Shown here: in pieces, positions 29,501 to 51,094 of the stretch
How the letters are laid out: the number at the start of each line of letters is the position of its first letter
How positions within the stretch are numbered: the first letter of the stretch is position 1
Assembly (NCBI GenBank): GCA_031763025.1
Contig: JASSKH010000043.1
Location: 888,501-952,500 of the forward strand
Reading direction: 5' to 3'
From: Macrocystis pyrifera
Lineage: Eukaryota; Sar; Phaeophyceae; Laminariales; Laminariaceae
Length of the DNA stretch: 64,000 nucleotides
Program-made: the position numbers and the translations under genes
The notes under the pieces: generated by a model
Database searches by the model: none
The model's input: only the letters and a program-made list of their open reading frames with translations
What the model was told of the DNA's origin: nothing

Positions 29501-32500
29501 CAGTACCCAAGCCCATGATGGTTTGTGGCGGACGCAACAATGGGTTGTCGGCAACGTCGAGGAACTCGTCGCAGACATTCCTCTTGCGTAGGGCCTGAAG
29601 AAATTCCATGGGCACTTCTGTGAATCGGATTCGAGTTGACGGCGGTTCAACGCGGGTCAACCAGGGTATGTAATGCAGTCGGTACATCACAACACTACGT
29701 CCAACAGCACCTAAAGTACGTGGCTGAACAGTTTGTGTACTGCAGCAGAGACTGACACATGTGCGGCATTTCTAAGCCTTCTGGGATAATCCCTCCATAT
29801 CAAAAGGGAAACACAACCCACATATCATAGCTGTGGAAATGCGGCCTCAACAGCTTCAAACAGAACGTTAGCCATCGGTTGCGTACGATAGGCGTGCTAG
29901 GTGTTCTACGTACATATACAACAGCAGCTCGGCCGCAGGGGAGCCTGTCTGAAGAGTCGAACAACACACAGCAGCTGGTTGGCACCTAACCACACAAGGA
30001 TATGCGGCAAACTCATAGTGTTTCGGAAATATACATGGCGAACCTGGTGTCGCGCGTCAACATTGTTCGTCGATGTATCGTATACTTCCTAGATAAAGCG
30101 GTCCCCCATGGAAAAGGACAAGAGACATATGCCATTGTTCAAACATTGTTTTTGTGGGAGGATGAAACCAAACGCGTGACACACTGAACGAACGGAGGGC
30201 GACATCGTTTAAGGTTTGTGGACACGTGAAGCATCACCTGAGCGCCACGAACTCCCCCAGCAAATCATCGCATCATAGGGTGGACGTTTGAACTCGCCCG
30301 CAGTAATGATGTGGTGCAGCCAAATCCAAGCAAGGCAATATACTGCAGTATCCCGACGTGAGATAATTGGGTGGCCTCGACGCATTCTTAGGCCTGACCG
30401 CTTCACGCAGCCAATAAAAAATTAAGATATCCCAGAAAAAAACGGCGAGGCGGTTGAGGAGCTTGCCTGAATTCCGTCACACACTTACCGCTGAGGTGAT
30501 TGCCCTGCAGACGCAGGTTTCGAAGAGTGGCGAGCTCGCCAAATTCCTTCGGGATTTTTCCTGCGCATGTCACAATAAATATGCAAGTATGTCGTTGCTA
30601 TTCGGGAGAAACATAGAGCACGACAAGGACAAATATTTGTGGCCATGCTTCTAGAGGCGGTCAAAGTGATGAAATTCTGAACCAACATTTTTTTTGTTTG
30701 GGCGCTTGCCGATGGTGCGACACAGGGCAAGGGGCATGCGCTTGAAGATATTGAAACACGCCCGGCCCCGAAAAGCTCTGCGAATAGGACAAACGACCCG
30801 GCGCCGGTTTGATCGAGTGAAATAGCACTATAGTCCTACCATGGAGTGGTCTCTTTCGCGGGAGCCTTTGTACCAACGAACTGTCGCCCGCGTCGCAGCT
30901 GTTTAGCAACACCATGTGGTGCATGGCGTATTTGGTTTGAGGGAATACACCCGTTATTCTTCGCGAGTGCAACTGCTGTAGGTAAGCGGTTCACAAGATA
31001 TGTATGTACAGTATTTCTGTCGGCTATTCAAACCCGAAGCAAACAGACAACACGCTCATTTGCACGTAGTTCCCAGTGTCAACTTCAGATGACGACTGCC
31101 GTTTTTTACATCCTTCTACGCTATCCTATTACGGGGGTCCATAGTTAACAGGACCTTTGGCATACATAAAAACCTATATATTTAGGTGTTTTTACTAACA
31201 ATATTTGGTCATGTTTACTATGTTTCCCCCGTAATAGTGGCACGTCAGTGTTATCACCGAAACGTTCACGCAACCATTGTTCTGACAAATTCATGTTTTT
31301 ATCACATTGTTCAGAAGCTTGAAACAAGTCTGAGCTGGTGAATATCTTTACGACAAGAGGCTGGACGCTTGGACCAAGTATATATATTCACTTGAAGTCG
31401 CGTCAGAGTGAAGAGGTAAACACGGTTGGCAGGTTAGGGATGCCCGCAAGCGTTCGAGATCGCCCCAGCGCTCATTGCCTCAACATCGACTCGGCGAACC
31501 GCTGGAGATTTGCATGATTGCGTACAAAACATTGTGAAATCTTGATGGAACCGAGGTGCAAAGACCGGCCAATGCTGACGCCCTGTTCTGCAGGTGCAGT
31601 ACCACGCTCCAACTGCATTGCACGCCAACTTGCAGTGTAGTTCGGGTATTTCATGTAGGATCCCCAAACGTGTGATTACTGGTTTACTCTGTGTGGCCAG
31701 TCCGTCGTTTGCTACGACGGACCTTTGTGTTCACATTGCAAACATATAGTGCTTTGCCTTCAGGATAGTTTTTGCCCGGTATCGGGAGGAAATCGAGTCG
31801 GCTCTTCTTCTGCGTCCACCAGTGGATGCAATCCTGACAACTTCTTCACGTCCTGCTTCACGAGCAACCACACATGCTCCAACCTCTCGTGTGACCACGT
31901 CCACAGGAACGCCTGATGATCAAGCTCCTCCTTTCCAAGTTGAGACACCGCCAGGATTTCACATTAGCAACACCCAAACAATGCGCAGTCGACGAAAGGT
32001 TTCGACGATGCTCCGGTCGGGAGCAATCGCGACTGCTGTGGGAGCCGTTTGAGAGGTGAAGAAATGACATATGTATGTGGGATCTCGTATTGTGGCCGGC
32101 CGAGTAGTCCAAGCTCAGAGGTTTGTCAGCTGAGACTATACCCGAAAGCATCACAATACGAAGGGAGGAATAAAAACGACTTGTGCGAGAATTTTCACTG
32201 CGTTTTCCCGACAACACAACGACAAGGTGTGGGCCCCCAACAACTATTTCGGGAACACCATCGTACTCCCGGGTGAGCTGGACTGTTAAAAAGCAGCTGA
32301 CGGCGATGTCGTTCGACAAGATCCGGCTGGAAACGGAAGCCTTGCCAGACGTCTTCGTGTGATGAAAGCGTCCTAAAAGAATTTGAAAAGTTAGTGTCGG
32401 GTTGTATCATCGAAAACATAAGTCATTCTGTATCTGGTACTACCAGGTATTCAATAGACAGCTTGAGTATTACGGTTCAGGCTGATATGTTCAGTACTTC

Positions 32501-35500
32501 GTGCAGTAATCACACCGCTTCGTGCAATATCATCAGCTCTACCCTGTAAAATTATGGTCAATAATAATACGAATGGGGAACTACAAGAACAGGCAAGCGG
32601 GAGGGGAGGATAAATGCCGTGCCACAATGAACGATGTATGAACGCCAGGCGAAACCACGAATTTCACGGGCTTCAATAGTGCTGTTTGAGACGCACTTGA
32701 GATATCGGCATCTACATGCACGCCGAGCGAGCGATTTCTCATCGCAAAACCTGTCAGGAATCGTGAACATTCTGCGTAAACATTGCGGTATCTTTGTAAT
32801 CTAATGTACTGCCCCGTGCCGTGAAATAAGCCACAATTTGAGCGGCCCTTGCAATGGCGATGCATTGTACTTTTTTTGTGAAAAAACAAAACTCAAGTAC
32901 GCCGCCAGTAGAGTTAGAATGCCGTGTCGGCTTTAAAAAAAAAAAATGTTCAGCACCAACAAGGTGGCCAAGCAACCCAAAGCTACCAGATGGCCAGGCC
33001 CATCGACTACGATGCAGCAGCCGACAAAAAGCGCAAGGCACAGGATCACAAGCATCAGCACCTGCTGAAGAACTGCACTGCAAATAGCTCGAAAGTCACC
33101 ACCGGAGCTGTGGGCCGGTCGAGTAATAGTGACGCAGTGAGGTGCTCGAGCAAACTCCAGCGGCGTTGTGCTTGCATAGCAACAGGCGCCGGGGCAACAC
33201 GCACTGGTATCGCTGAAATGCCGGTAAATATTCTCCACATTATCCCGTGTGAAAGGTCCAGAGTCAACCGCCGCCTGGACATGCTGTAGTTACAGGTGTG
33301 CTTCGCTGTTTCCCCGGTCACGCGCCAGGTGGTTACCACAACGTTTCGATTTCACGTAGTTTCGGCGGGTGCCGGTTTGGCACCATATTATGCAACTGTA
33401 ACGCCAGAAACAAGGTCGGCAGGAGCGACGATCTTGCTGCGCCGTAGGCAAGTGGTATCGCCGTAGTGCCACATGGTGCGGGTCTATACTTGGTTAGTCG
33501 TGGCTAGTCGCCACCCGTCTGAGACGGTCACGCGTTCCCACATGGTGCGGGTCTACACTTGGTTAGTCGTGGCTAGTCGCCACCCGTCTGAGACGGTCAC
33601 GCCGTTCATCATACTTTGTGAGACGACTAAACGAAAAGCAGGACAGTGCAAAGTCATCTCAACACGCCTGCCACAACTTTCCCCAAGCACGGGCCAAATC
33701 GTATGGCTTTAGTCGACCGAGGATCCGAGTGCTATACGTACTGTATTGCACGTACAAGTGTCTACTCAAGACAGTGCAGAGTACAATCCGGTCGGCCTTA
33801 CCCGTTTTACCGCACACCTTCCATGTTTATCACTTACCGTTCAGTTGATTGTTGTCCAGACGTAGACGTGCTAAAGTCGGAATATTGCAAAGCTCCTTAG
33901 GAATCTCTCCTGCGCAGTAGTTGGAGTTTGAGTGAGCAAAACGAGCGTTACATTTTACACACGAATGTACCCAAGGAGTTGTTTCAAGACGATAATACGT
34001 GGCGTTTCACGGCATCCAAGTTCCGCCAACCATTTTGGCTGCCTTTTCCCTAGGAAATAATATACCTTGGGATTTGTTTGAGCGATTGGGAGGGTCTCAT
34101 TTTCACCGCACGAAGCAATAGATACCTCAGTCGAGAGACAACATCAATTAAACTATCTCCGCTGCCCAAAATTATAATAAAAAACGGGTACTTACTGCAG
34201 ACCGCAGTACCCACGACAGTTGCGATCGACGTCCACGGGGGACCATAGTAAATACGACCTACGGTACACACAAAACCTCTATCTTTAACTAGCTTTACTC
34301 CCAATATTTGGCTTTATTTTATTTAGTCCCCCGCAATAAAATGCCGAGTCAACGCGCAGGCTCCCCGAGTGCAAACCCAAAGACCAATGAGCGCTATGGG
34401 GGGAGGGGTATGATCGGCGGACAGAGAACAAGGAAAACTGCAGTCGATGGCTTCTGTTTTTAAAACTAGTGTTTGACTTTTGTCCTGACTCGGTGTGTTG
34501 GACGGTTTTCTATCTCGTCTAAACGTGACGACCTCAGCAGGAGCACTGATCGCGAAAACATGTTCCAGGTACAAAACGTATAGCGCAGCTTGCAAAGTTA
34601 GGTATCAACTATTCAATCAGTCCAATTCACAGCTGACGTATTTGTGAGAGGTTTACAAAACCCATCTGTGTCTGTGTAAGTAAACCCGAATTTTAGCCGT
34701 AAATCGTAGAAGCCATAGGTCGTAGTGGAAGGTAGGTGTTGTAGTATTTCGTTGGTATTTTGGCTTCGTTAGGCCCGCGCCGATGCACTGATCAGAGGTG
34801 TTTCGACCCCTCATCTCGACGTGGGCATGGTGACTGAGGTGTGCACAGAGGGCGGAACCATCCGTCTCGCGAGGCGACCGCCCGCCCTCGTCGAGGCACG
34901 AGGAAGGCACCAGTGCGGCCTTGGGCGAGCTTCTGTTGCGCGGCTTCACTTACATGTGCGAGATACGAAGGTCCTTAAGTCTCAGAATGAAGCGTCAATG
35001 CGGTATTGGGTTGGCGGACAGAGAGGGTGTCGAGGCGGAGAGAACGGGCGCCGCAAGGCACCACGCGCTCAACGCGACAAGGGCGGCGGAGTGCATTGGG
35101 CCAGAAAGGGGGAAGGCTTTGCGCACACCGAATCGGTGGCGAGGTGGTCAAGAGACGGGCGCAAAGCCTACTACTGTTGGCTGACAGGGCCAACTGTGTT
35201 CCATTGGTTTTTGAACGAAACAAGGAATTCTGACCTGCCCGGGAATAATCATTCGGGACGGAATCATGTTTTTGTAAGGAATGAACGTCCGAATTATCGG
35301 TTTCGAATCGTTTCCATTTTTTCTCAAGAAATGATGAGTACTGTTGTAGTGGTACGGCCGCTGTCACACCGCCGGGGCCGACATATTTACGCATCCACTC
35401 ACCTAACCCCCACAACCTACCCACCCACTAATTCACCCTACCCCACACAGCCACCCGCCTACCTGCTCACCCACCTACCCGCGATGTGAACAGCTATACA

Positions 35501-35987: not shown

Positions 35988-36025
<38 letters not shown>

Positions 36026-39000
36026 CACCGGTGGGTAAGTGTTTCGTATCAACGTTTTGTTTCTGTTGTAAACAGCTGTGGTGGTTATTCTCCCGGCCAC
36101 CGTCGCTCACGCCGTCCCATGGAAGTCGATTTGTTCGCTCGCTCTTTCGCTCGCTCCCGCTGCTGCATCATTCGCACGATTTTCACCGCTGTCTCTAAAT
36201 ATATGGACATAGTAGTACGTAAAAGATCCTCGTGTTTGGGGACGGGCTGGTATACACCTCGTACCTGGTACCACCGAGACAGGGAAAATGAGCAACCGTT
36301 TGATATCCTTGCATCATGCTATCAGGACCATTGCCACGATATACTGCAGGGCGTCTGCGAAACACCCGGCCATTCTCTGACGAGAGAGCCTAATTCGTCG
36401 CCTTCTTTCTATACTGGGGCTTCTTTCCCTGCAGGTCTACGAGCACAGCAGCAGCAGAAGTACCAGGTGGGCACCGGCTGTTTGTTTGCTGTGCAGCTTG
36501 GACCACGGGAACTGCAACGTTCACCGGGGAGAGAGGGCGGCTCCACCGTCGTTTTTTTTTTTTTTCAGTTTTCGCTTTGTTGTTGTCCTACCGGTGCGAT
36601 GGGTTTTATAGTTCGACTACAATAGTTTTTGCTTTAATCGTATACCTGGTAATTTGTTTTTACCGCCATATGTTCAAGCCAATACGATGAGTTTGCACAC
36701 TGAAATAATACACTCCATGCGTAGTAAGGCCAGGCCAGTACCTAGGTACGCGGAGTGGGTGTGGGGTCTGTGGGTGGGCGTACAACAAAAACGTACTCCA
36801 GTACGTATGTTGCCCTCAATTGTGCGTGGGTTGATAGGTGGATGGGGCAGTACGTGGGTAGCGGTTTTCGCCGGGGGATGGAACACCAACCCCCCTATAT
36901 GTTCTACGTACAGGAGTATTGGGTATATATTCCCGGCCACCGCAGCTCGCTCGCGCCACTGCTCAACCGCCGATCATTCACTCGCTCGCTCGTTCGCTTG
37001 ACCGTCGATCGTCCGTTCGCTCGGTAGTTTGCTGGTGGCCTTGGGCGGGCCTTTGTCGATCGCACGCCGCCCGCCCACCCGCCCGCCCGCTCGACCCGTT
37101 AATCGCGCCGTCGCTCACGCGCCGCCCCTCCCGCATACGGCAAGACCTACAGGAGTATTGATCTGAGAAAGCCCTGCTTCTGATTGTGCTGGGAATTGTG
37201 ATAATGGGAAGAACCAAGGCGAGACTCTGCCCGCCGTTCGTTGTTTTCAAGTGAGACTCGGGGATTAAGACGGAAATTAGCTTTCTTATATTCCTCCTAA
37301 ATCCCGGCACAAGACGTCAGACATCCGCAAGAATGATATCACGAGACGTCGAGACTCCGCTCCCTTGACCGGTGGGTGTCCCCGGGGATGGAGCAGACAC
37401 CCCCACGCGCGCGCAAGCAGCGTGGGCAGAGCTGTCGAGCATCAAAGTTGGGGTGGAAACTCGAGGCATTTCCTTTCTGGGGGGCGGAACCTCCGGAGTG
37501 GAAGGAATTTGAGCAGTTGCTCAAGCTATGCTTTTAGAGGTACTGGACTATCGTTGTTCGGTAATCATTCAAAAGGGCCAATTTAATTCACCTAGAAGCT
37601 GTTGAAACAAAATCGCAGAATTTGCCCAGGAGGCTAATATGGTAGCCTAAACCGTAGCGGTTAACCTTGACCTCTACTGTGAATATTTACACCGAAATAA
37701 CTTGTGTTATCATCAAGTTGGCGATGGCATTGATCACAAGCGACCAGATATTGAACGTGAGGTCTACAATGTGCTTCACGATAAATAGTCAATCATGTGT
37801 ATTGATTAGCTTATCCAACAACTGCAGTACGATGAACATATACACCACCCAACAAATATAGCCATGCTGAGGATACCACCCAAGCGATGGAAAACGTATC
37901 AAACACGTCAGTAGGGCGTCGTTGGATGAATAGTACGGGTGAACTATACTCTTCTCGGTTCTATCGATAACACAGTGTTCAGCACCGGCCATAAAATGGG
38001 TATTCTATAAAATATAGCTCTGTACTGTGGTCCAAGCTCCCTGAACAGAAAATAGGGGACGGAAAACAGTACGGGCACGATCTACCAATAGAGCGGTGGC
38101 GTGCTTCAAGCAGGAAGTGAATGGGCGCGACACACGCATGGAATAGACATAAAACGAAAACAGACGTCGACGCACACGCGTTGACGACCGGTATATGTAC
38201 ATGTCTTGCGGCACGAGGTTTTTTGCGCTAGCCTTCCTACTACAGCAGAAGCGGCCCCGTCGGTCTGTACGTGTAGGCGCACTTGAGACGCAATGGCTTG
38301 ACTGAGGAGCTGTGCTTGAGTTGGCATATTTGATGAACTAATGATGCAGGGACCAGGAACCGCATCTTACGGGCCTCATGATGCCGGGCACGAGGGCCTT
38401 GTAGGGAAATGAAGCGCCCACACATAAGATAAAACGTGTTCCAGCAACTCTGATGCTGCCAAAATGTTCTACGTGACGGAAGGTGATAACGTCGCGACAA
38501 CGAAAGGGCCAGAAAATAGGTGTTCTGATTGACGGCGAACGAATCTGCAGACAGCCCTTCCGCATGGTCGTCAATGCGGTTATATACACGGAATAAACCA
38601 CAACTTAAATCTGCGCCCCTGTCTTCAAATTGTGTGCATCAAAAATGCGTTTAGGTCCATCAATGCTGCGTTGGAGACTACAGTAATGTTGTCACAAACC
38701 CAATGTTCGCCTGGTCGAACGACAGCATTCTGCAGTAGCAGCGGTGGTCAACTTACCTGTAAGTCGGTTTTCCGAAAGATCAATCCACTGGACGGACGCG
38801 AGATCGCCGAGTTCTTTCGGTATTGCACCTGCGCGGAAAGGGACGATGTCCCGACTTAAAGAAACATACGTTACATGTCGCACGTCGAGTTGGAACCCTC
38901 CCACCCACTCATCGTAGCTTCCTATAACCTTTTTTGCAACAAAAAAAAAGGCGTCGCGCTTTAAGACGGCCGTAGAGGCGAAGTCAGATCTACACCGGCT

Positions 39001-42000
39001 GTGCTACCTTAGGTTGGGTTTCCGATTTTTTCGCCTGTTTTTTCACGCTCGGTATGGACGAGCTATGCTGCACCATGTGGCGCAGTACATGCACCGTGTG
39101 GCACAGTTCACCCCTAAATGGGTTAACCTGGAGACTAACGGTGCTTCGAGAAATCGGTGTGCATTTTTCAACGTGAAAATAGTTTGTTACAGCTGCCGAA
39201 ACCAGGGTAGCTGATACATCAAGCACGATGCAGTGGACAAAAATATCCTGACGGCGTATTTAGAATAAGCCATGGGTACCGCTATCCGGAACCTAATGGA
39301 TGGATATCGTTAGGTCTTTGCTGCGCTGAGTTGCTCCACTGAAAGGCATCGGGTCGTGGCTGATGTCGCTAACTATGCATCCAATACCAAACCCGGCACC
39401 AAGAAGCTCGCAAACGGCAGTGAGCTGGGATGCAACACACGTGGTAGTATTCTACGTTCAAGTTGTTGGCAATACTTTCATGGTGAATCTGCGGGATTTG
39501 TGTCCACCACCAGACCCCTCGGCCGTGGTCACAGGTGCAATTCGTTATCCCGGTCGGCTTGGCCGCCTGGTTGGTGCCTCTACTCATACGCATTGTCCAT
39601 CTTCGTACTGGTTCAGAAAAATCACTCGTCGTTGACGTTCCCTCTGTTTTTCAACCCGTGCTTTAGTACGACCGGCCGCTCGATACGTGTTCAGAGGCCT
39701 TGCTATTGACTACACCAGGCGAGCAATCAGTGTCCGGCAAACACGTGAGCAGGAGCGAGATACGTTTCAAGTCCACAGTGGAGGCTGTTACAATGCAGAC
39801 GCGCAACAATTATTCGCCGGGGATCGATAGTTGATTTCTTGCGCAAGAAAAATTCTGAGGGGGGAGGCCAGGGGTAATATGTAATGATGTAGAAATCTTA
39901 GCGGAACGTACTTACATAAACTACAATAAGATTCACGACAACATCCACCTCGGCGACGTCCATTTTCTTCTTTCGTGAAGGCGATGACGAATTTTGCCGT
40001 GCACTGCGGGGTTTTAAAGTTGTCCAAACAAGTATATAACACGTTCAACCATCAGACCAAACCCGTTTCACATGCATCGCCACACACGACAACGCTTTTC
40101 ACCATCCGCACCCTGCATAAACACGGTAGATAACACGTCTACACGTTTCCGAAGCGCATCGCACAAACTTACCGGTCAGACGGTTCTGATCAAGGTATAG
40201 AGCTGAGAGCCTCGGTAGCTTGCCAAGCTCCTTCGGGATTTGTCCTGGTATGTGTTGGAACCAAGGACCAGCACAGCGTTAGAAATAAAACACTATAGGC
40301 CATCTCTTACGGGATGATACGGAAAACCGAAACAAAGATACCCGAAGCTGTGTTTTGTACGTGCGTTCACGTGTTAAAGAAGCAGCGTCCGACCGAATCG
40401 GGCTTGCTTTTCCCACAACCCGGCCCTTTGGTGATCGGTATCTCGACCGGTTCTTCTTTTCTCCAAGGGAGTAGTTCGAAGTGTTTAATCATGTTTTCAC
40501 TTTCGGACAAACAAATCAGAAAAAGACTATTACGGGGGATCATAGTTAATAGGACTTCCGGTACACACAAATATATTATATATATATATTCACCTACTTT
40601 TACCATTTTTTTTTGGTCCTATTTACTATGCCCCCCGCAATACCAGATGGATATATCCAAGTTATATCCGAAACCTTTGGCTATTTTGTCAGACAGACCG
40701 CGCCCAAAACTGACTTGGAGGAGATTGAAGTGCATGCATCGACAATTTTCAAACTGATATCTGGAAGAATCGGGAAACGGCTTTGGGTGCCCCTCGCCAA
40801 ATAGTTTGTGTGGAGGGGAAACAAACGGGACAGACATGCCAGATTCCCGGGCCATACAAATATACACGTACGAAGGTGCTGCAATCTCCATTTCCAATCC
40901 ATACAACAAAATCAGTTTGCCGGACTCGGGCGGTGATCAGACTACTCGTGTGCTCCTCAGAATAAGCCACCCTGCCATCCCCGGAGGTATCCTGATAACC
41001 AATCGGCTTCTACATCGATGCAGTTAGATATTTTATTCATCAAAACCGTTTCCAATCATGCCCAATACGAATATAACCAAATCAAAGCAACATTCTCTCC
41101 GAACTCCTCGACGTCTCTCACTACTGTAGGGAGTACCATGGCGCCATTGCATATTTTGAGTAGCTTCTATTCTAAAATATCTGGAAATTGTACGGTCCAC
41201 GCGGGACCAATTTGTCAACTTTGGGTTCGCCTGAAGACATCGAAAATACGCCCAAATCTATACTAAAACGGCCTAGCTCATGATCGCCATGGCTGAGAGA
41301 ATCGGACACAGTCGAACCAAACCACAACCGTGTACCGAAGTCAAGTTATCTAAGGGTGGCCACCTGAACCGCAACAATCGTTTTTGTGCAAATGGAATAC
41401 AGACCGCCGGCTGAATCCCAAGACACCTCGATTGTACCCTATTTAATGGCGCTTGTGCGTAGGTGAGCCTCAACGGAAACTAGACTTCAAGCTATGGTTT
41501 ATTGCTCAGACGATCTGGTACCAGCTGAGGTCAACACGTTTTTTATGCGTCGGATGACCACATCATGTTTCAGGCATACATCGAGACATCGAAAATACGC
41601 CCAAATCTATACTAAAACGGCCTAGCTCATGATCGCCATGGCTGAGAGAATCGGACACAGTCGAATCAAACCACAACCGTGTACCGAAGTCAAGTTATCT
41701 AAGGGTGGCCACCTGAACCGCAACAATCGTTTTTGTGCAAATGGAATACAGACCGCCTGCTGAATCCCAAGACACCTCGATTATACCCTATTTAATGGCG
41801 CTTGTGCGTAGGTGAGCCTCAACGGAAACTAGACTTCAAGCTATGGTTTAATGCTCAGACGAGCTGGTACCAGCTGAGGTCAACACGTTTTTTATGCGTC
41901 GGATGACCACATCATGTTTCAGGCATACATCGTGAGTTTGTGCACGTTTCACGTGGATTGTGAGCTCCTGTCGGTCTGTTGATGGCCGGTGTTTTTTTTT

Positions 42001-45000
42001 GTTGCTTTTGGCTTTGGCGAGGTATTTCGGTTGCCGGGGATTACCTTCTGGACATGCCGTAGACAAAGAGGTGTGCTTGTTGACTCCCCCGTTTACACGC
42101 CAGACACTTACCACGGCTTGTCGATTGATAGCGATAGATTGCCGAGCGCCGCTTCGCAACGGCCTTGGGAGAGAACTACACCACATGCTAGAACACCCGA
42201 AAGTTCGTCAACAGGATAGTGCATTATCTTACTGTAGTATCAGGTGTGGTCTAGCACTTACCGCACAGCTGATTGACGTTGAGATATAGACCTTCCACAG
42301 CGGGAAGGTTACCAAGCTCCTTCGGAATATCTCCTGCGTAGTTGTCAGAGAAAATAAGGAATCTCAAGCGTAGAAAATTCGACAGCGGTATACCCCCGAA
42401 CTGCTGTACACACGATGGTGGACGAGTTGCTCGTCGATCGTATCGTTGGCGTTTACTTGAAGAAGGTCGAAACGAAGGGGCTGCTTGTTGTTTGTCAAAC
42501 GTACCACTCGTAAAAAAATTACTCTGTTGCGAGCAAATCAAGTTTGTAGTGTACACAGGGTGACATGATATTACGGGAGTCCGTAGTTAACAGGACCGAA
42601 TATTGTTAGTAAAAATACCTAAATTTATAGATTTTTATGTATGCCATAGGTCCTGTTAACTATAGACCCCCGTAATAGTGACCGTTCACGAGAACGACCG
42701 CGGTACCCATGCGTAGGACCGCGGGTATGATCTCCGACACGATTGAAAGAACCAAGTCTTTTTCCCACGACATTTGTGGCTGACTAACCGCGACCAACGA
42801 ACCTAGAGGCTAGCCGGGTTCAAGTCGAACGTGCAACGATGCTCAGTGACGTGGGAATGCGTCGGCGGCGGGAAGATCAGCGGTGGCTGGTGGGGTAGGG
42901 TGCGATCGGATGAGCCAGACAAGAGACAGCTACACGCATCTTGCCTATAATTTTAAGTAAGATATCGTTTTTGGTGTGGCAGATTCAGCGAGATGTATCG
43001 AATAGGATTTTGTATTCTGCTGTGTCATCGGTGTATTCGGATGCACATCTCCTTGTCTATAAAGGCATGCTTATTTCTCCTACTATGAATAGTTAGAATC
43101 ACATATATCGAAGTACAGGACATAGAACTAGTTCAAAAAAACTAATAGGGCGATAACCAGCTCATACACTGCTTGTTTGGAGGCGATGTGCTGCATGAAG
43201 GAAGTCGGTGAGTGCGATATACCAGTACAAAGAACACATCACATCCCAACGCACACAAGTTGACGATATGTACATAGATATGTGTCAAGAGCTCCATGCT
43301 CCAAGATAACAACCCGGAGCCGCATGCACGTATTTACGCAATATATGATACCTACTCTTTTGACATGCCCGAAAGAGAAAGCTTAGCGTAGCCCGCACTG
43401 CGCTGCACTGCGCTGCACTGCGCTGCACTGCGCTGCACTGCGCTGCACTGCGCTGCAGTGCGCTGCACTGCGCTGCAGTGCGCTGCACTGCGTTGCACTG
43501 CGCTGCACGGCGCTGCACGGCGCTGCACTGCGCTGCACTGCGCTGCACTGCGCTGCACTGCGCTGCACTGCGCTGCACTGCGCTGCACTGCGCTGCACTG
43601 CGCTGCACTGCGCTGCACTGCGCTGCACTGCGCTGCACTGCGCTGCACTGCGCTGCACTGCGCTGAAACGCGCTGCACTGCGCCACACTGCGCTACGCTG
43701 TGCTGCTATCCGCTGCACCGCGCTGCACTGTGCCGTACTGCGCTACTGCGCTGCGCTGCACCGCGCTGCACTGCGCTGCACTGTGCTGCACCGCGCTGCA
43801 ACGCGCTGCTCTGCGCTGCACTGCGCTGCATTGCGCTGCACTGCGCTGCACTGCGCTACACTGCGCCGCACTGCGCTGCACTGCGCTTCACCGGGATACA
43901 CCGCGGTGATCTGGGCTGCACTGCACTGCACTGCCCTGCACTCCACTGCGTTGAGCTGCATCGTGAGAGCAGCTGAGCTGAGTGTGCCTTCCTTCCCTGC
44001 TACTATATGTGGTACTTTGTATATTGGACACAGGGTATGTACGAAAGCTCTCGCTGTGCTGCGCTACTGATCTCTGAGCTAAGCAAAGCTGGGTGTGACT
44101 ATTACGGGGGTCCATAGTTAACAGGACCTATGGTATACATAAAACCTATATACTTACCTATTTTTACTAACAAAATTTGGTCCCGTTAACTATGGACCCC
44201 CGTAACAGTGTCTTTTTCGAAATCTTGCAATAGTGTGGCATCTTTTTACTTCGGATTTGAGGTGAGCTCAGCTCGACTGGGTGTGATTTTCGAAAAAAGG
44301 GAAAATGAAACGAAGACAAGGAAGAAAGCGAAGAAAGGCTGGAAGAACTCGAGGATCGATCCCCAACGAGCATTTACGAGTTGAGGAGGGCTGCGAGGTG
44401 GGAGAATATACGGAGCGACACAGCTGAGGATGTGATTATGACAGTGTACCAGGCATGTTTGTACATGGTTAGTTCAGCGTGACTGCACACGGTCAGTTCT
44501 AATCACTTTCAGGCGTTCCGCCGAACGTGTCGCGGATTATGCAAGAAGCAGATCCGTTATTGCGGAGGACCATAGAAAATAGGACCAAATATTGTTAGTA
44601 AAAAGAGGGAAATATACTGTTTTTTTTGTGTGTACGTAGGTCCTATTTACTATGGTCCCCCGTAACTAGTTTGATCGCAAAGACACGTTTGTTTTAGGCC
44701 TGCTGGCCGATAGAAACCGTCGTTTAGTGGATAAAGTTTGCGACTAAGTGCCATCGCCAGAAGCGCATCTGATAGACATCAGAAACATAGTAGACCACTG
44801 TCTTGTTCGGCACGTGTACATACGCTCCACCTGCAAGACGAAACACGAGGGGTGAATTATGGCTGAGAACGTCGCAAAAAGGAAGGTGTCGTATGCATAG
44901 TTTTTGTCAATTTCAGTTAGTAGGTCTGTTCACAGGCTCTCATTACCTCGTCACTCACCTTAGTAGGATACGCTGAGAACGCGGAAAAGCACGCTTGAAG

Positions 45001-48000
45001 CACAAAACGCCTTTCATACTTGGTGCGGCAGTATCGTGTTTTTCGTGTTTGGGATAATCAATACCGCGTTGAGGTCTATCGGCCTACTGCCACAGAGCCA
45101 ATCGTTTTACTGTCGAACCACGACGGCATGCGGCTGTAGAGCGCATTGTGAACGCACCTGTCAGTTGGTTTCCCGAGAGATCAAGCCACCGGACGGACAC
45201 AAGATCGCCCAGTTCCTTCGGTATTTCACCTGTTGCCAAAGGGATACAAAACAAGGACGACAAAATAAGCAAATAAACTACGGAAAATACTGGTTCGAAC
45301 ACCAATCACATGTCGTAGTCGTGTATCACCTTCGATGCAACATAAGAACGCAATGCCAGCTTCAGACGGCCGTGAAGGTAAATTAGGCCTGGGCTCGTCG
45401 TGCTCGTCTTTCCCACCGCATGGTCTATGTCTGTGTTGGGCCAATTGTGAAGTACCATGTTGCAAAACACGAACGGTCGTTTTGTATGTTTGGGATGATT
45501 TTATTGCATTGATCCATCGGTGGCGCAACGTTCAACCTGCAACTGTTCGTGCACAACGGCCTACTCTTGCCTAACGAGGCTAGTGTGTCAAGTACAATGC
45601 AGTCGACGACATGTCCTGACAACGGATACGCGATCATATTGCATACTGTTCTAGAGTCTACTGGATGGCTTATCTCTAGCGTGGCAGCGTTGGATTGTTG
45701 TCGAACTATTGTATGTGTGATACCTTGTGCACTGTACTGGTCTGCGGATATCTGGGGTTTCGTATTGTGTGGCGAGGTGCATTATGATCTGAGACTATGC
45801 TTGGGTACTTGAATTCGGTGTGAACGGATGCTCCCTCTTTGGAGGCAGTCGTGGATAATCACGAGATGCGGCCTGGGATTTTATAACAAGTTTTTTGTGT
45901 CCGTATATATGTGTCGGTGGAGCGTGACGACGAGGTGCGCCTCATCCCTGTGCTGTGTGTGTACGACCGCACTATGCTGGTCCTATGGGCTATGACGGTA
46001 AAAAAAGGGTTGCGTAGCACGCGTTCGACAGCAGCGTGTAGAAACACGATTATCGTCGTGTCAAGGCTCGGAGCTTGCTGAAGGGGTATTGCTATGACCA
46101 AAGGTGATCGAGCTGCTTCGGTGAACACTTGATAAGATGGTGGCCGAGCGAGAAGCGGCTTTGGCGGCAGAGAGAACGCTCAGGGTATTAGGCGAGGCAG
46201 CGACTGAGCGAGACGTGGTCTCTGCAGCGGCTTTTTGTAGCTGAGAAAGCACTGCTAGTATCAGCCGAGGCATCGAATCAGGATGGTACCCAGTAGTAGG
46301 ACCGGGCAGCCTATGAAGCAAGCGAGTGCTAGACAACAAGTGCCGGGCCAAGGCTACCGTCGCCATGCCGGCACTTCGCGCATCATGCAAAACAGCATGC
46401 GAGCACCAAGTTTGTTAGTTGCAGTCAGGTCCACTTGTGGTCGGGTCGGTTACAGAATTTCTTGACGGCCCAGGCTTTTTCTATGCGCTTGAGCCTACGA
46501 GCGAGCTCGTTCGGATCGCTGGAGGTTACGGGGGCATGGTGGAGCGCAACCGGTCTGGCCCCCGTGAATTTGAAGGAGGAAGGAGAAATGTGTGAGAAGG
46601 CATGAGACTAATTGACGGAATCCATGCCAGGGCAGCTTTTCGAGGAGCGCATGCATGTCACTGGGTCAGTGGAGGGGGCTTGGAAGGTTCTGGTGGACAG
46701 GTACCAGCCGAACGGTGATGCCGAGAGGAACTAACTGGAGATGGAGGTCTTCGCTCGTGTCGAAAGGAAGGTGCATGCATCGGTTAGATGAGGTATCTAC
46801 TAGTCGGACCGCAGAGTTGCTTGCCTACTCATACGTCGTCTTCCGTCGAAGTTATAAGACTTAGAGAAGCGATCAAGGTTGTTTCGGCCCGACATCACGC
46901 GCTCGGAGATGGAAAATATCGTTCGCACCCCCTAGACTAACCGCAAGACCAAGGCGTTAGAGGAGCAGAAGTACGAGACGGTCGTATAAGCGGTTCTATG
47001 GCCGTCGGTGGATCCCCAAACCCTCGTCGTTGGTGGTGAGGCTCAGGTCAATAACGTAGGGGAGATCGTTGGAGGATTTTGTCAGCAGCAACCTCCTCCT
47101 CCTCCTCCTCCTCAGCAGCAGCAGCACTAGCAGCATGGAGATGCCGGACAGCAGCAGCAGCAGCAACAGCAGTCTAGGTACCGTGCAGTTGCAGACGCGG
47201 CAATAGCGAGGTTCCAGTCCTCAGCCGCAGCACGGGAGTGGCGACCAGGGGTACTACCAGCAGCACCAACGCTAGCAGCAGCGTCACCATCAGCAGAACC
47301 CGGTAGACACGGTTTGGGTAGACAACACGGGAAGTGGGTGGTACCAGCTGGAGTTCAGTCCGCCTCCAGAGCGTCGGTGGGGGCGGGGTGCACTTATGCG
47401 GGTTGGTGTGATGCCCCTCGGGCAAAAGGTCCCTCTTCGCAGAGCGCCGAACGCTTATGGGTATTTGTGGGGCCTACGGTCCCCCGACCAGGCAGGGAAG
47501 CCCTGCCCAGCTCACCCGTAAGCATTCGAGCATTGCTACGGACTCTCCGCTTGGCCCTACGACCCCGCAAGAGCACTAGAGCAACTTGCCGCAACAGGGG
47601 GTTGGCTACCGCAGCAAGACAACCTTGTAATGAACGGCGACGGTGTTAGTGGACCAGGGGGGGCGATGGGAAGGGGACAACGAGGGAAGGGGGCGATGAG
47701 GGTGGTGGCGTACAACAATTGGCTGGGGGCGGTATAGACGGCAGGAAACAGCATCCGGACGGGGGCGGTATGAGCGGCGGCGAACCACAAGGGGGCCAGG
47801 GCGGTACCGGCAGAAGGGAATCACACTAGGGCGGGGGAGGTGCTGGCAAAGGTGAGCCACGACGGGACGGGGGCGGTGTGCGCGGTGGAGTGCAGGGGGG
47901 TAGAGTGCAGGCACGGCCAGAGCCAGGGGGGGGGGGCAAACCCACGAGGGTTGGCCGTTTTCCTCCACTATCGACAGCCGAACAGCTGCGAGCAGCGAGC

Positions 48001-51000
48001 AGCGGACCGCAGGCTATGTTGTCCATCCTCTTCGTGACCTATCTATCACATTAGGCAAATCACATGACCTGTCTGTTGGGGATGGTCCCGTCAGGCCTAC
48101 AAGGTCTGGGAGTATTTATTTCTATTGGAGATATAGTGCTGATTCAGTCCACCGCACTGGTGATTCTGGCATTTTTCTACAACAGGAGCCCCCCCTGCCC
48201 TCGACGAAAAATACTTTATCATGTGATGGGGGAGATGACAGAGGCCGAGCGCTTTGATTGGGTTGGTTGTGTTGTTGATGAACTGTGCCGAGAACGCATT
48301 ACCGGGGACCATAGTAAGTAGGACCTGCGGTACACACAAAAAACTATACATTTACCTATTTTTACTAACAATATTTGGTCCTATTTACTATGGTCCCCCG
48401 TAAGAGAAGTGACCTGAAAGAATGTGGCCTTCGTGCCTGGGATACGATTTGATTTTTGCTCGCTGCCTGCACTCATCCTGAAATAATTGTCTATTACAAC
48501 ATACGGATACAAAATCAAACAAACTCCGAACTCTGAAACTTGTACTGTATATAGGTTGGAGACCAGGGTGGGCAATGGACAACGTGGAAACGGTGAATGC
48601 ACACCTACAGCACCTAGCATACCCGATACGCCAAGCACAATGCAACCGGCAAGATGTCCTAAAAACTGTTAAATGACAGACTAGTGAGAATGCCGCTAAA
48701 GCTGTGGGACATTTGTACTGTATCCCCGCGGCGTTGGCTTGTCATACGACGGTCGCCAGTTTTGAGTAGCAATAAACGAGGTCGAATACTAGTACGTCTT
48801 GGGGCAATACACAGCTACAGTCAAGATGGACTCTTGAGAGTTGTTGCCTTCAGCACACTTCTAGATATGCCGTGATAACACGTGTCCCTATCGTGGAGAA
48901 CAAGAGTATTCCGATCTCGTGCTAAACTAGGCGCCCGTGTTTTGAGGTCAAAGTTACACACCAGGTATCGTATACCAGTTGTTTAAAACCCTACTGCTTG
49001 ATGAGTTTGGTTGTGCTTGGAAAACTCTCTTCTCGCACGTTCGGCCACTAGTCACGAGATATACAACCACTGTAAATGAATACACCATGTGAGTGTCATC
49101 CCCCAGCGCATCCGTTGGCGACAGCAGTGCTCCGCACCTACAAGAGACATCATTCATGTACAACAACAAGCAGTCAAGGGAGGCGGAGAAGCAACGTTCG
49201 TCTACCTCGATACGCTATCTCTGGTCGGGACAACTCTAGACATAACTGTTGCTTGATTTAAGTGTATTGCGGGAACGCACAAAAAAACGTTTAAAATCGA
49301 CGAAAAAGTCGATGATTTTCTTAGTCCGTCGTTTGTTTCAATACCCGCGATCGATATTTAGTTGCCAGAACGTGCTTCAACTACAGCACCTGGATCGTAG
49401 TGAACATGTCCTCGACGCTAATGCCCCGCGTCCATTTGCAGTGAACGCGTGTAAACAAAGGGGAATGAAAAAGGGCACACGGCGACCCGAGACCTGCTTC
49501 ACACTCATCGCTAGAGTAACAAGGTTTTCAAACTCTTCATTGTTTCCGGAACGAAAAAGCGTGTGCAATGTGTGCACGAGTAGTCCTCCCGAATACACCG
49601 CTTAAACCTCACCGGTGAGCTTGTTTTCGATGAGATTTAAAACTTCCAAGGCCGGGAGACTGCCGAGCTCTTTTGGGATTTCGCCTGCGCAGTTGTCGGA
49701 ACCAAGAATCAGCAGCACAAGGATGCAAGTATTAGTATGCAGACGCGCTGTAGTTACGTTGACTGATGGTGCTGTTGGCGGTGGTGTACTGTTTGGAACA
49801 TTGAGCGGGAGTGTGTTGCTGTGGATAGCATATACGTCGAACATAGCACAACAGATTCACATCAGAAACGCGTGACCACCAAATGCGATTTTAAGACGGG
49901 ATCGTCGGGCTTTAAGGTGCTAGAACTATTCGACCTGATAGCCACGACCATCAGGCTGATACAGATAACCCTAAGCCCAAATCCCATGGGCGCTCCGGCA
50001 GCAAGGCAACACCAAAAATGGTCCCACACCATGCAATCCCTTATGGTGATGACAGAAAATGTCTAATACATTGTTCCAAGATACAAAATATAGTCGGACT
50101 AGGCTACTACGGGGGACCATACAAAGTGGGACCAAACATTGTTAGTAAAAATAGGTAAATAGATAGGTTTTAGTGTGTACCGTATGTCCTACTTACTATA
50201 GTCCCCCGTAAAAGTTGTAAACTCTGACATGGCTGAAGTTGTAGAATGGTCCAGAGGTCCCAACAATATGTCAGGCGTTTGGAAGCAATAATTTTGCAGA
50301 ACTGGGTTTCCGACATCATATTGTGTGGGGGGTCATGCAGCATGTGCCTGTGGTCACTCATTAGCAGAAAGAGTCCAATAGCAACCGTCCGGAAAGGACA
50401 GTAGTCTTACTGAAACAGCTTATTACGTGGGTAACAGATGTATGGCGGGGTGCGCGGGTTTTTGAGTTCCGTACCGCGTCACTCTTGTCGCCGACCCCAA
50501 CCTATGCGCGAGTTGCCAAGGGACAGATGGCCTCAACACGGAGCAAGCGTTGGCCTACTCGCACGCCCGTATGAGTATTACGTTTCGTCGTGAACACATA
50601 AATTTCGCTGCGTCACGAGCCTCAGTATTATACCTCCAGTTCTCGAACTTTCGAGGCGGCCGTTATGATGTACACACATGCTTTATCTTGGGCGTCATAT
50701 ATCGCTTTCGATAGTTACGTTTCTGCATGTTGCCATCTCGATGCTGGTTGGAGCAGCCTCGACCAGAGGTTGGTCACCCCGGCTCAACAGCATGCTCCTA
50801 CAGCGTCAGTAACTGATATGGTTTGGGAAATAAACGGCAACATTGGTTTGGATTGCAGTTGAAAACCCTACGCTTAACTGGAGTTCAAGGGAAAATCCAT
50901 GGCGGTGTCTCACTCACCACTGAGGTCGTTGTCAGGAAGGTATAACTTAACTACCCGGCTCTCGTCGTTGACGGTAACACCGTACCAGTCGCCGATGTTG

Positions 51001-51094
51001 AGGTCGGTAGCCCAGCCATCATGCCTCCACCAGGACTCTCCACCTGTTGCCTGGTACAGGCGAATGAGCGCTTCACGATCGTGGAGAGCCGAAC
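23029..51094 (-). CDS. LRR-ROCO family GTPase gene, about 13 exons, first exon not found
   Basis: In transcript order the gene has an LRR N-cap exon (51094-50918), seven 72-nt LRR exons, a Roc GTPase exon (29617-28993), two COR exons (about 28650-27930 and 27397-26367) and two C-terminal exons (23820-23593, 23505-23029). The LRR exons all enter and leave in phase 1, and the last joins the Roc exon in frame as HLSEVPMEF. Roc carries G1 GLVEAGKT, G3 DFAGQ and G4 THTD. ROCO proteins are intracellular GTPases that signal through Roc-COR dimers; in Ectocarpus, LRR-ROCO genes were proposed as recognition receptors that diversify by LRR exon shuffling (Zambounis et al. 2012). No signal peptide or start codon was found upstream of the N-cap. 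The Roc-to-COR splice phase is unresolved and the second COR exon contains two single-base frame shifts at homopolymers, so the gene may be mis-sequenced or inactive. Confidence 0.85.
23593..23820 (-). CDS. Probable penultimate exon of the ROCO gene
   Basis: A 76-codon stretch open between acceptor gcgttag and donor gtaaac, phase 0 at both ends, compatible with the exons on either side. It reads QWHTVAKGVETNDD, then CELERMTELSDLASDRWLQ and SMARCRAKTAGRRRQRIIL. I do not recognise a domain; support comes from phase, splice sites and position. Confidence 0.5.
24393..24618 (+). mobile_element. MITE family 2, copy 2
   Basis: Ends GAGGCGTTCTACGATAGAGG and CTATCGTAGAACGCGTC form inverted repeats of about 18-20 bp; internal sequence matches the other copies. 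Confidence 0.8.
25162..25267 (+). mobile_element. MITE family 1, copy 7
   Basis: TA-flanked; left arm is the TCCATAGTTAAT variant, right arm the TTACTATGGTCC variant. Lies in a ROCO intron. Confidence 0.87.
25507..25753 (+). mobile_element. MITE family 2, copy 3
   Basis: Same ends and interior (CACCC...GAGGAGCTCC-like, TTGCATCCCGATGAATA, GCGGAAACGTGCTACC). Lies in the same ROCO intron as copy 2. Confidence 0.8.
26367..27397 (-). CDS. COR-domain exon, C-terminal part, with two single-base frame shifts
   Basis: The exon starts phase 0 after ggtcag (TYLRFLWLHRHLDDELK) and continues LDEFNRVLETMETLLVLYR, FVVPARLPEYGD, RCSFRRSYAPPGLIGRFLAF and ECWQHG. The family-like text then moves to a second frame (LRPGSHDVLLYETHSSE) and to a third (NGCVVFPGLVLCVKGSSPAA), continuing to YLVKDLPNLVK at donor gtttgc. 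The two changes sit near a T5 run (27035-27041) and an A10 run (26980-26990), and each is explained by one extra base. Homopolymer base-calling error is the simplest reading; true decay is the alternative. The exon length (1031 nt) is not a multiple of three although both ends are phase 0. Confidence 0.75.
27930..28650 (-). CDS. COR-domain exon, N-terminal part (5' boundary uncertain)
   Basis: The frame runs through ARYRKDKAKEIAKTEARHG, PLFIHDKIFRTSLDS, FPGVRATIPQAWLDA, GEAVQTFEYFMEAKG, REAEGDVLLSLG, LYLDPTWLIELIRRLTDHN and ends DMLWEQHRQ at a phase 0 donor (gttcac). The LDPxWL and DHN segments match the COR region that follows Roc in this family. I could not find an acceptor matching the phase 2 donor of the Roc exon, so the start is approximate and a small extra exon is possible. 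Confidence 0.75.
28993..29617 (-). CDS. Roc GTPase exon of the ROCO gene
   Basis: A 625-nt exon that starts in phase 1 after ttcacag and ends in phase 2 before gtacat. It encodes a linker (EVPMEFLQALRKRNVCDEF, ADNPLLRPP) and then the Roc domain: KMVLVGLVEAGKTTVVRN (P-loop), STVGIDI (switch I region), SIWDFAGQANYYASHQIFL (G3), LFLLVVDLRAL, and VALVGTHTDEF (G4, with the THxD form common in Roc). All nucleotide-binding motifs are intact. Confidence 0.92.
30489..30560 (-). CDS. 72-nt LRR exon 7 of the ROCO gene
   Basis: Phase 1-1 exon reading GKIPKEFGELATLRNLRL then QGNHLS, acceptor gcgcag, donor gtaagt. It joins in frame to the Roc exon, giving HLSEVPMEFLQAL, which supports both boundaries. Confidence 0.9.
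31139..31234 (+). mobile_element. MITE family 1, copy 8
   Basis: TA-flanked; left arm GTTAAC variant, right arm TTTACTATG variant with a slight length change. Confidence 0.85.
31764..32052 (+). CDS. Possible orphan terminal exon inside a ROCO intron, opposite strand
   Basis: After a good acceptor (ttgccttcag) a frame runs IVFARYREEIESALLLRPP, a Ser/Thr/Pro-rich middle and TMRSRRKVSTMLRSGAIATA to a stop, about 95 residues. No matching upstream exon was found and no domain is recognised, so it may be a relic or chance. Confidence 0.2.
33470..33605. repeat. 69-bp direct repeat, two copies
   Basis: CACATGGTGCGGGTCTA through GAGACGGTCACGC occurs twice with a 69-bp period and about one mismatch, ending about 230 bp downstream (in transcript terms) of LRR exon 6. 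Confidence 0.92.
33838..33909 (-). CDS. 72-nt LRR exon 6 of the ROCO gene
   Basis: Phase 1-1 exon reading GEIPKELCNIPTLARLRL then DNNQLNG, acceptor gcgcag, donor gtaagt. Confidence 0.9.
34233..34336 (+). mobile_element. MITE family 1, copy 9, degenerate
   Basis: Left arm good (CGGGGGACCATAGTAAATA), right arm strongly diverged but ending CCCCCGCAA then TA. Confidence 0.75.
35989..36022 (+). repeat. Uninterrupted run of 34 cytosines
   Basis: Mononucleotide C tract in a ROCO intron, followed by TCCCACCGGTGGG, a short palindrome. Confidence 0.95.
38757..38828 (-). CDS. 72-nt LRR exon 5 of the ROCO gene
   Basis: Phase 1-1 exon reading GAIPKELGDLASVQWIDL then SENRLTG, acceptor gcgcag, donor gtaagt. 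Paired by similarity with the exon at 45158-45229, including intron sequence. Confidence 0.9.
40173..40244 (-). CDS. 72-nt LRR exon 4 of the ROCO gene
   Basis: Phase 1-1 exon reading GQIPKELGKLPRLSALYL then DQNRLTG, acceptor taccag, donor gtaagt. Confidence 0.9.
40530..40640 (+). mobile_element. MITE family 1, copy 10
   Basis: TA-flanked copy with an expanded TA dinucleotide stretch in the core. Confidence 0.86.
41235..41932. repeat. 349-bp tandem duplication, two copies
   Basis: AGACATCGAAAATACGCC begins units at 41235 and 41584. I count about five mismatches over 349 bp, so the duplication is recent. It lies in the ROCO intron between LRR exons 3 and 4. Confidence 0.95.
42262..42333 (-). 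CDS. 72-nt LRR exon 3 of the ROCO gene
   Basis: Phase 1-1 exon reading GDIPKELGNLPAVEGLYL then NVNQLCG, acceptor tacgcag, donor gtaagt. A cysteine replaces the usual threonine near the end of the repeat. Confidence 0.9.
42572..42675 (-). mobile_element. MITE family 1, copy 11
   Basis: Reverse-oriented, both arms of the GTTAAC variant and matching each other; TA-flanked. Confidence 0.87.
43395..43965. repeat. 10-bp minisatellite, unit CTGCACTGCG
   Basis: About 55 units, nearly perfect in the middle (43510-43660) and diverging outward. Because 10 is not a multiple of 3, every frame cycles through the same decapeptide; the unit has no stop on either strand, so long open frames (about 110-170 codons) appear on both strands without implying a gene. 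Confidence 0.95.
44102..44205 (+). mobile_element. MITE family 1, copy 12
   Basis: Both arms of the GTTAAC variant; TA on the left, CA on the right. Confidence 0.86.
44560..44665 (-). mobile_element. MITE family 1, copy 13
   Basis: Reverse-oriented relative to copy 12 and about 350 bp away, so the two could pair as an inverted repeat in a transcript. Confidence 0.84.
45158..45229 (-). CDS. 72-nt LRR exon 2 of the ROCO gene
   Basis: Phase 1-1 exon reading GEIPKELGDLVSVRWLDL then SGNQLTG, acceptor caacag, donor gtgcgt. It is the closest relative of the exon at 38757-38828, and similarity continues into the introns on both sides. Confidence 0.9.
46600..47200 (+). mobile_element. Possible gag-like relic of an LTR retroelement (copia-like), broken
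   Basis: A stretch reading VEGAWKVLVDRYQPNGDAE resembles the gag segment of copia-type elements, and is followed by a glutamine- and proline-rich region near 47085-47175. No reverse transcriptase, integrase or terminal repeats were recognised around it. The copy is clearly interrupted several times and old. It sits inside an intron of the ROCO gene, antisense to it. The family call is tentative. Confidence 0.3.
48299..48402 (+). mobile_element. MITE family 1, copy 14
   Basis: Arms TTACCGGGGACCATAGTAA and TTTACTATGGTCCCCCG; flanking TA degraded. Confidence 0.85.
49613..49684 (-). CDS. 72-nt LRR exon 1 of the ROCO gene
   Basis: Phase 1-1 exon of 72 nt encoding one 24-residue repeat, GEIPKELGSLPALEVLNL then IENKLTG. 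Acceptor gcgcag, donor gtgagg. The intron just upstream shares a ttgg/cggaaccaag-like stretch with the exon at 40173-40244. Confidence 0.9.
50107..50211 (-). mobile_element. MITE family 1, copy 15
   Basis: Reverse-oriented copy; left terminus CTACGGGGG preceded by TA. Confidence 0.84.
50918..51094 (-). CDS. LRR N-cap exon of the ROCO gene
   Basis: A 177-nt exon, phase 1 at both ends, with acceptor aacag and donor gtgagt. It begins SALHDREALIRLYQATGG and continues WWRHDGWATD, DWYGVTV, then VVKLYLPDNDLSG. This is the cap plus first repeat found at the start of many LRR proteins in stramenopiles and plants. It contains no initiator methionine, so a short upstream exon ending in phase 1 must exist. 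Confidence 0.88.

What the first reader, a model, noticed from the sequence alone, without database searches (positions are those of the whole stretch)
30489..51094. Seven interchangeable 72-nt phase 1-1 LRR exons feeding a Roc-COR GTPase
Seen: seven exons of exactly 72 nt, each one 24-residue LRR with the frame xxIPKExGxL, all entering and leaving in phase 1, preceded by a phase 1-1 cap exon and followed by a Roc exon that accepts phase 1. Any exon can be gained, lost or reordered without breaking the frame. Known: Ectocarpus LRR-ROCO genes were proposed as pathogen-recognition receptors that diversify by LRR exon shuffling. Inference: this locus is a member with the shuffling substrate intact, spread over about 20 kb of repeat-rich intron.
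Basis: partly seen in the sequence, partly recalled or inferred. Interest (0 to 1): 0.8.

Follow-up and report, generated by a model that had tools for sequence, protein, structure and literature searches.

The report
Kelp LRR-ROCO gene with shuffled exons
This is very probably a giant-kelp version of a brown-algal receptor-like gene whose binding surface is built from interchangeable 72-base exons; the design is already known, and a sister copy elsewhere in the same genome shows such exons being multiplied and gained or lost.

Summary
On the minus strand a 177-nt cap exon and seven 72-nt exons, each one LRR, all phase 1-1 with AG/GT borders, lead to a Roc exon that accepts phase 1. A profile found no eighth.

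The design is the known brown-algal LRR-ROCO type (Zambounis 2012; Teng 2024): a new member of a known kind.

What I add is a paralogue on contig C200 whose introns still align with this gene (about 67-78%). There the segment holding E7 is absent, E6 is a degraded relic, and the E5-type exon exists in four copies, each within homologous blocks of 1.2-4.0 kb. So exons here change by duplication and loss of intron blocks.

Caveats: C200 looks like a pseudogene, so its turnover may be neutral. The window gene has two frame breaks in homopolymer runs, perhaps errors of a long-read assembly. COR is confirmed by no profile. Splicing, expression and immune role cannot be tested here.

The parts
50918..51094 (-). 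Cap exon, 177 nt, phase 1-1 (DREALIRLYQATGG motif), N-terminal cap of the LRR solenoid
   Evidence: Direct reading; homologous caps with the same phase-1 acceptor at C210:1042.8k and C223:5192.0k, 49-53% aa identity
49613..49684 (-). LRR exon E1, 72 nt, phase 1-1
45158..45229 (-). LRR exon E2, 72 nt, phase 1-1; 85% nt identical to E5
42262..42333 (-). LRR exon E3, 72 nt, phase 1-1
40173..40244 (-). LRR exon E4, 72 nt, phase 1-1
38757..38828 (-). LRR exon E5, 72 nt, phase 1-1; its block (about 38479-39072) has four homologous copies at C200
33838..33909 (-). LRR exon E6, 72 nt, phase 1-1; at the collinear place of C200 only a relic remains
30489..30560 (-). LRR exon E7, 72 nt, phase 1-1
30087..30829 (-). 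743-nt segment with E7 that is absent at the collinear place of C200 (1764014/1764019); both ends carry the short repeat TCCATGG, present once at the C200 junction
   Evidence: DNA search of the genome returned only the window
29009..29617 (-). Roc GTPase exon, enters and leaves in phase 1
   Evidence: Pfam PF08477 1.5e-16; best PDB match 4wnr 7.7e-17; borders read
27934..28630 (-). Exon after Roc (COR-A position); enters phase 1, leaves phase 2, donor reads GC where C210a reads GT
   Evidence: 61% aa identity to C210a, 74% to the C200 part; donor comparison; no Pfam or PDB match
26346..27428 (-). Exon with the COR-B-like (recalled) and C-terminal region; two +1 frame breaks in homopolymer runs near 27.04 kb and 26.98 kb against C210a
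31127..31236 (+). Copy of a ~110-bp palindromic repeat (MITE-like, recalled class) in intron 7; absent at the collinear C200 site
34235..34338 (+). Copy of the same repeat in intron 6; absent at the collinear C200 site

Best explanation
A kelp LRR-ROCO gene. Shown from sequence: a cap exon and seven one-repeat LRR exons of identical length and phase would splice in frame onto a Roc GTPase exon and the exons after it. Inferred: the product is a short LRR solenoid on a Roc-COR GTPase switch, binding a ligand on the concave face. Shown by a paralogue: the number of such exons changes by duplication of intron blocks (about 1.2-4 kb) carrying an exon, by gain or loss of a segment flanked by short direct repeats, and by decay of an exon. 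Because every exon is 72 nt in phase 1-1, adding or removing one would not break the reading frame. Inferred, as proposed in the literature: this turnover, taken to be germline, diversifies recognition, perhaps of pathogens.
For: Exons, phases, Roc. In four loci, 18 of 19 LRR profile hits with i-Evalue below 1e-6 sit in AG-72-GT; the exception is C223:5194421 (acceptor AT). The 18 built the profile, so only their borders are informative. C200 paralogue collinear with window 25753-39072, E7 segment absent, E5-type exon in four copies whose upstream flanks (250 nt) are 84-93% alike. E6 relic and E7 junction. Roc dN/dS about 0.2 against C210a and C223, with dS near 1. Positions 14, 16, 18, 19, reported as positively selected, are among the most variable: 4 of 715 sets of four non-consensus positions, this one included, are as variable in the 18 exons, 23 of 715 in the window's seven.
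Against: No transcript, no strain data. The last large exon has two frame breaks in this assembly. COR has no profile, PDB or fold support. C200 looks like a pseudogene (frameshift in Roc, no cap found in 50 kb, 141 against 56 lineage changes over 741 codons), so its exon turnover may be neutral. Selection inside the E5 class is unclear: pairwise pN/pS 1.69 at the four positions against 0.38 elsewhere, pairs not independent, while a minimum-change count is not significant (5 of 19 changes, p 0.22; 5 of 14 at non-consensus positions, p 0.44).
Confidence: 0.82

Rival explanations
1. The window gene is a pseudogene: the LRR exons are remains of an array and the frame breaks in the last large exon are real.
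For: Two frame breaks against C210a; many ROCO genes of brown algae are called pseudogenes (20 of 37 in Ectocarpus earlier, ten in the newer annotation; Teng 2024); C223 has an in-frame stop and a 1-nt deletion, C200 a frameshift in Roc.
Against: All seven LRR exons, the cap and Roc are open with AG/GT borders; Roc dN/dS about 0.2; both breaks lie in or next to homopolymer runs (T5, A11), and in the passages seen the published assembly was PacBio, Canu, polished with Racon.
Confidence: 0.3
2. Exon turnover is neutral: frame-neutral exons in long introns simply duplicate and decay, without any gain in recognition.
For: The clearest turnover is in C200, which looks dead. In five of six C200 pairs the exons are about as alike as, or less alike than, their upstream flanks (exons 79-85%, flanks 84-89%); the sixth pair is 97% against 93%.
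Against: In all eight C133-C200 pairs of the E5 class the exon is more alike than either flank (74-85% against 63-76%), so the exons were constrained for part of their history; the variable positions include those on the concave face.
Confidence: 0.35
3. The array is mainly used by alternative splicing: each transcript takes a subset of the seven exons (Dscam-like), rather than by evolution of exon number.
For: Reported for Ectocarpus ROCO genes, as many as nine transcripts (Teng 2024); all exons here are mutually compatible in phase.
Against: Nothing in this window tests it; no transcripts are held.
Confidence: 0.3

Closest known systems
LRR-ROCO genes of Ectocarpus (Zambounis et al. 2012, Mol Biol Evol 29:1263; not held, known here from passages in PMC4104024 and PMC7317505 and from PMC11378527)
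   Same: One LRR per 72-nt exon, N-terminal LRRs followed by Roc-COR, proposed exon shuffling and immune role
   Different: Ectocarpus is credited with 37 (Zambounis) or 31 (Teng) genes; here the window's Roc exon finds eight matches that I group into six loci. More distant ROCO genes would be missed by that query: Pfam Roc gives 53 matches in the genome, other GTPases not excluded
ROCO genes of Saccharina japonica and other brown algae (Teng et al. 2024, PMC11378527, parts 1-5 of 6 read)
   Same: 72-bp exons, nucleotides 3-71 coding 23 residues; selected positions 14, 16, 18, 19; COR mostly missed by profiles (found in 18 of 111). Their 'phase 2' I take as the GFF convention for what is intron phase 1 here (my reading)
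   Different: They infer shuffling from structure and selection; here a paralogue with alignable introns shows individual exon duplications and gains or losses
Bacterial and archaeal Roco proteins and LRRK2 (PDB 4wnr, 6hlu, 6ojf)
   Same: Roc domain; the window exon shows a P-loop (GLVEAGKTT) and DFAGQ
   Different: No kinase domain was seen in the exons read; one exon per repeat has no counterpart in prokaryotes (recalled)
Dscam exon arrays of arthropods (recalled; also named in PMC11378527)
   Same: Arrays of interchangeable exons of equal phase
   Different: Dscam exons are mutually exclusive in splicing (recalled); here there are no splice data and each exon is one repeat that can be added in series

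Membership tests
Brown-algal LRR-ROCO (groups 1/2 of Teng 2024) | Each LRR on its own 72-nt exon | tested here: met
   7 of 7; 18 of 19 strong profile hits in four loci
Brown-algal LRR-ROCO (groups 1/2 of Teng 2024) | All LRR exons in the same phase, compatible with cap and Roc exons | tested here: met
Brown-algal LRR-ROCO (groups 1/2 of Teng 2024) | Roc domain (PF08477) downstream of the LRRs | tested here: met
   61.2 bits, cut-off 27
Brown-algal LRR-ROCO (groups 1/2 of Teng 2024) | COR domain after Roc | tested here: inconclusive
   PF16095: 0 matches at E up to 0.001 in the whole genome; profile of three paralogues: 0 PDB chains at E up to 5; AlphaFold2 model pLDDT 37.9. The exons are conserved between paralogues; COR-like motifs are recalled only
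Brown-algal LRR-ROCO (groups 1/2 of Teng 2024) | Exon number and content differ between paralogues (shuffling) | tested here: met
   7, 4, 3, 4 exons in the four loci read, of six found; E7 segment and E5 copies differ in alignable introns
Brown-algal LRR-ROCO (groups 1/2 of Teng 2024) | Diversifying selection at positions 14, 16, 18, 19 | tested here: inconclusive
   Variability ranks high; pN/pS 1.69 against 0.38; minimum-change count p 0.22
Brown-algal LRR-ROCO (groups 1/2 of Teng 2024) | Alternative splicing of LRR exons | not testable with these tools
   No transcripts held
Immune receptor | Ligand binding or pathogen response | not testable with these tools
   None

The most novel reading that the evidence does not exclude
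In this kelp lineage LRR exons are units of rapid germline copy-number change: each exon rides in an intron block that is duplicated or deleted, so that individuals or populations differ in exon number and order at ROCO loci, giving a receptor repertoire that evolves by block turnover without a recombinase. The window's long introns would be an active substrate.
Probability: 0.2. Interest if true: 0.7.

Novelty: new member of a known kind. Interest (0 to 1): 0.38.

Why it matters
How brown algae recognise pathogens is open, and ROCO exon shuffling is a leading proposal that, in the papers seen here, rests on exon structure, selection tests and splice variants. A pair of paralogues whose introns still align, in a genome that appears to be that of one haploid gametophyte, lets the shuffling be read event by event (gain, loss, breakpoints), and gives defined sites to test in population data.

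Tried and rejected
Further LRR exons in the window: none by profile. COR by Pfam over the genome, by profile against PDB, by AlphaFold2: nothing usable. Copies of stretches around E7, E1 and E2: only the window itself was returned; around E4: beyond itself only a dispersed ~225-nt repeat, with 40 of 195 candidates scored. That search is insensitive: the E2 query did not return E5 (85% over 72 nt). E3, E5 and E6 stretches were not searched this way. The palindromic repeat as the cause of exon turnover: not supported, since the C200 region, where turnover is clearest, has no copy in 50 kb, and the two window copies checked (31127, 34235) are absent from collinear C200 sites. Concentration of amino-acid change at concave positions in the E5 class: suggestive by pairwise pN/pS, not significant by minimum changes. 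Lineage test for a dead window gene: replacement/silent 32/24 against 95/46 in C200, Fisher p 0.19, but far fewer changes in the window gene. In one search rows in which a copy met itself or a neighbouring copy in the 5-kb stretch were set aside. The first exon with the start codon and the last exon were not settled.

Full report
Observation. Each is bordered by AG and GT, is 72 nt long, and codes one repeat of the form xIPKELGxLxxLxxLxLxxNxLT, with small departures, between its third and seventy-first nucleotide. A scan of both strands for AG-72-GT/GC frames open in this phase gave 427 candidates; the seven score 10-12 of 12 on an LRR template and only two others reach 6 or more, at 7 and 6. 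A profile built from the seven finds no further exon in six frames. The motif IPKExGxL holds in six of seven; E6 reads IPKELCNI. The cap exon is 51094-50918, 177 nt, phase 1-1. The Roc exon opens after ACAG at 29617 and leaves in phase 1 at 29009; Pfam Roc scores 61.2 bits against a cut-off of 27, and the best solved relative is 4wnr at 7.7e-17. Introns between the cap and E7 are 1.2-4.8 kb.

Genome. The window is part of contig C133 of a 537,376,219-base genome in 223 contigs. The Macrocystis pyrifera assembly of PMC10498591 is given as 537 Mb, 223 contigs and 50.37% GC, from one haploid female gametophyte, PacBio reads, Canu, polished with Racon (passages only); window GC is 50.4%. If so, paralogues are not two haplotypes of a diploid.

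Rest of the gene. Two further exons are conserved with paralogues: 28630-27934, entering in phase 1 and leaving in phase 2 with a GC donor where C210a has GT, and 27428-26346. They sit where COR should be, but PF16095 has no match in the genome, a profile of the first of them has none in the PDB, and a three-sequence AlphaFold2 model is unusable (pLDDT 37.9). Teng 2024 likewise found COR in only 18 of 111 genes. Against the C210a frame, which is open there by my reading of the alignment, the last large exon has two +1 breaks, in or next to runs of T and A near 27.04 and 26.98 kb. Whether these are errors or decay cannot be told here. Roc is under constraint: dS 1.05 and dN 0.19 against C210a, 0.87 and 0.19 against C223.

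Paralogues. The Roc exon finds eight matches, which I group into six loci including the window; Pfam Roc gives 53 matches in the genome, not sorted further. Selecting for 72-nt frames, C210a has four LRR exons, C223 three, C200 four. A profile search without a length rule gave 19 strong hits in the four loci, 18 of them AG-72-GT; the exception, C223:5194421, lacks the acceptor. The profile was built from those 18, so only their borders, not their detection, are informative. By blastn, C210a and C223 align with the window only in Roc, the later exons and a few short repeat-like stretches; their caps align at protein level. C200 is different: it aligns collinearly with window 25753-39072, at 76-78% around the 3' exons and about 67-74% over the introns further up.

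Exon events. (1) Window 30087-30829, holding E7, is absent at C200 1764014/1764019. Both ends of the window segment carry TCCATGG, the C200 junction has one copy, as expected from deletion between short repeats. The direction is not settled; loss in C200 is favoured weakly because E7's closest exon outside the window, though only 68% alike in DNA, is the last LRR exon of C223. (2) At the collinear place of E6, C200 has a relic: the acceptor and the first 13 nt of the exon lie in a deletion, another AG happens to lie in register, and the in-register donor reads GG; the profile gives it 12.3 bits. (3) E5 lies in a block that aligns to four C200 exons (1775460, 1777765, 1791539, 1793853). Pairs of these share 0.9-2.5 kb upstream and 60-695 nt downstream at 82-90% (which looked at 2.5 kb on each side), within self-matches of 1.2-4.0 kb. 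(4) In the window E2 is 85% identical to E5 while all other pairs are 49-71%. E2 and E5 flanks are 64-68% alike over 250 nt in a forced alignment; their local scores, 31 upstream and 32 downstream, only just exceed the maximum of 29 from 40 shuffles, made for the upstream side only. E2 looks like an older duplicate. What is shown at C200 is duplication and loss of intron blocks that carry an exon, not exchange of bare exons.

Caution on C200. Its Roc is frameshifted, no cap exon was found within the 50 kb, and it carries 141 lineage changes against 56 for the window gene over 741 codons, counted where both outgroups agree (95 replacement and 46 silent against 32 and 24, Fisher p 0.19). It is probably a pseudogene, so its turnover may be neutral and may post-date its death. 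Against that, in all eight C133-C200 pairs of the E5 class the exon is more alike than its flanks, while among the C200 copies it is not clearly so in five of six pairs.

Selection. Positions 14, 16, 18 and 19 are those reported as positively selected. Among 715 sets of four non-consensus positions, 4 (this one included) are at least as variable in the 18 exons and 23 in the window's seven; positions 1 and 11 are more variable than 19 in the 18. In the E5 class pairwise pN/pS is 1.69 there and 0.38 elsewhere; the pairs are not independent, and a minimum-change count gives 5 of 19 changes, p 0.22.

Intron repeats. A palindromic repeat of about 110 bp occurs at about 20 places in the 64-kb window (my merging of 35 rows), none in the C200 region, 1 in C210a and 2 in C223, 50 kb each. 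Two window copies are absent from collinear C200 sites. These look like later insertions, not needed for exon turnover.

Known work. Zambounis 2012 is not held; a passage in PMC4104024 states 72-nt LRR exons, 37 ROCO genes and C-terminal parts that can resemble transmembrane proteins, and passages there and in PMC7317505 give the immune proposal. Teng 2024 (parts 1-5 of 6 read) describes 72-bp exons, selection and alternative splicing in four brown algae, notes 15 further non-ROCO sequences with such exons in Saccharina, and argues that splicing is the simpler source of diversity. A search for Macrocystis pyrifera with ROCO gave nine papers; by title and start of abstract none but Teng 2024 is about these genes, and its four species do not include this kelp. 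So the locus is a new member of a known kind; what is added is the event-level comparison with C200.

Noticed in passing
L033 (C153:22001-32000) and contigs C1, C7, C8, C11, C52, C73, C82, C103, C113, C149, C153, C160, C161, C169, C187: A gene-like stretch with a cap-like hit and two 72-nt LRR exons. One 600-nt piece of it has 18 copies at 98-100% identity on these 15 low-numbered contigs (C153 is 385 kb), with more diverged copies on C214, C129 and C200:1912k; a piece 7 kb away has 15 copies at 98-100% (40 of 1305 candidates scored). A recently amplified LRR locus, or many assembled versions of one repeated region.
   Followed up: partly
L032/L034 (C213:1846001-1866000), cap hit at C213:1843042: Four 72-nt LRR exons (1849278, 1851046, 1851812, 1853806) with no Roc match nearby; about 6 kb downstream an open frame that looks hydrophobic by eye has a phase-1 acceptor and no Pfam match, so the same exon type may feed a membrane protein.
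   Followed up: partly
window, about 20 places, e.g. 31127-31236, 51204-51310: About 110-bp palindromic repeat, much denser at this locus than at three paralogous loci.
   Followed up: partly
window 10390-10497 (+): Full-length U6 snRNA match just over the Rfam cut-off (44.1 against 44).
   Followed up: no
window 41235-41932; 43395-43960; 60009-60636: A 349-bp tandem duplicate (98%) and a 10-bp array of 56 copies in introns, and a 94-bp array of 7 copies beyond the gene.
   Followed up: no
C223:5194421: LRR exon with AT in place of the AG acceptor in an otherwise 72-nt frame, and an in-frame stop in the exon after Roc of the same locus.
   Followed up: no
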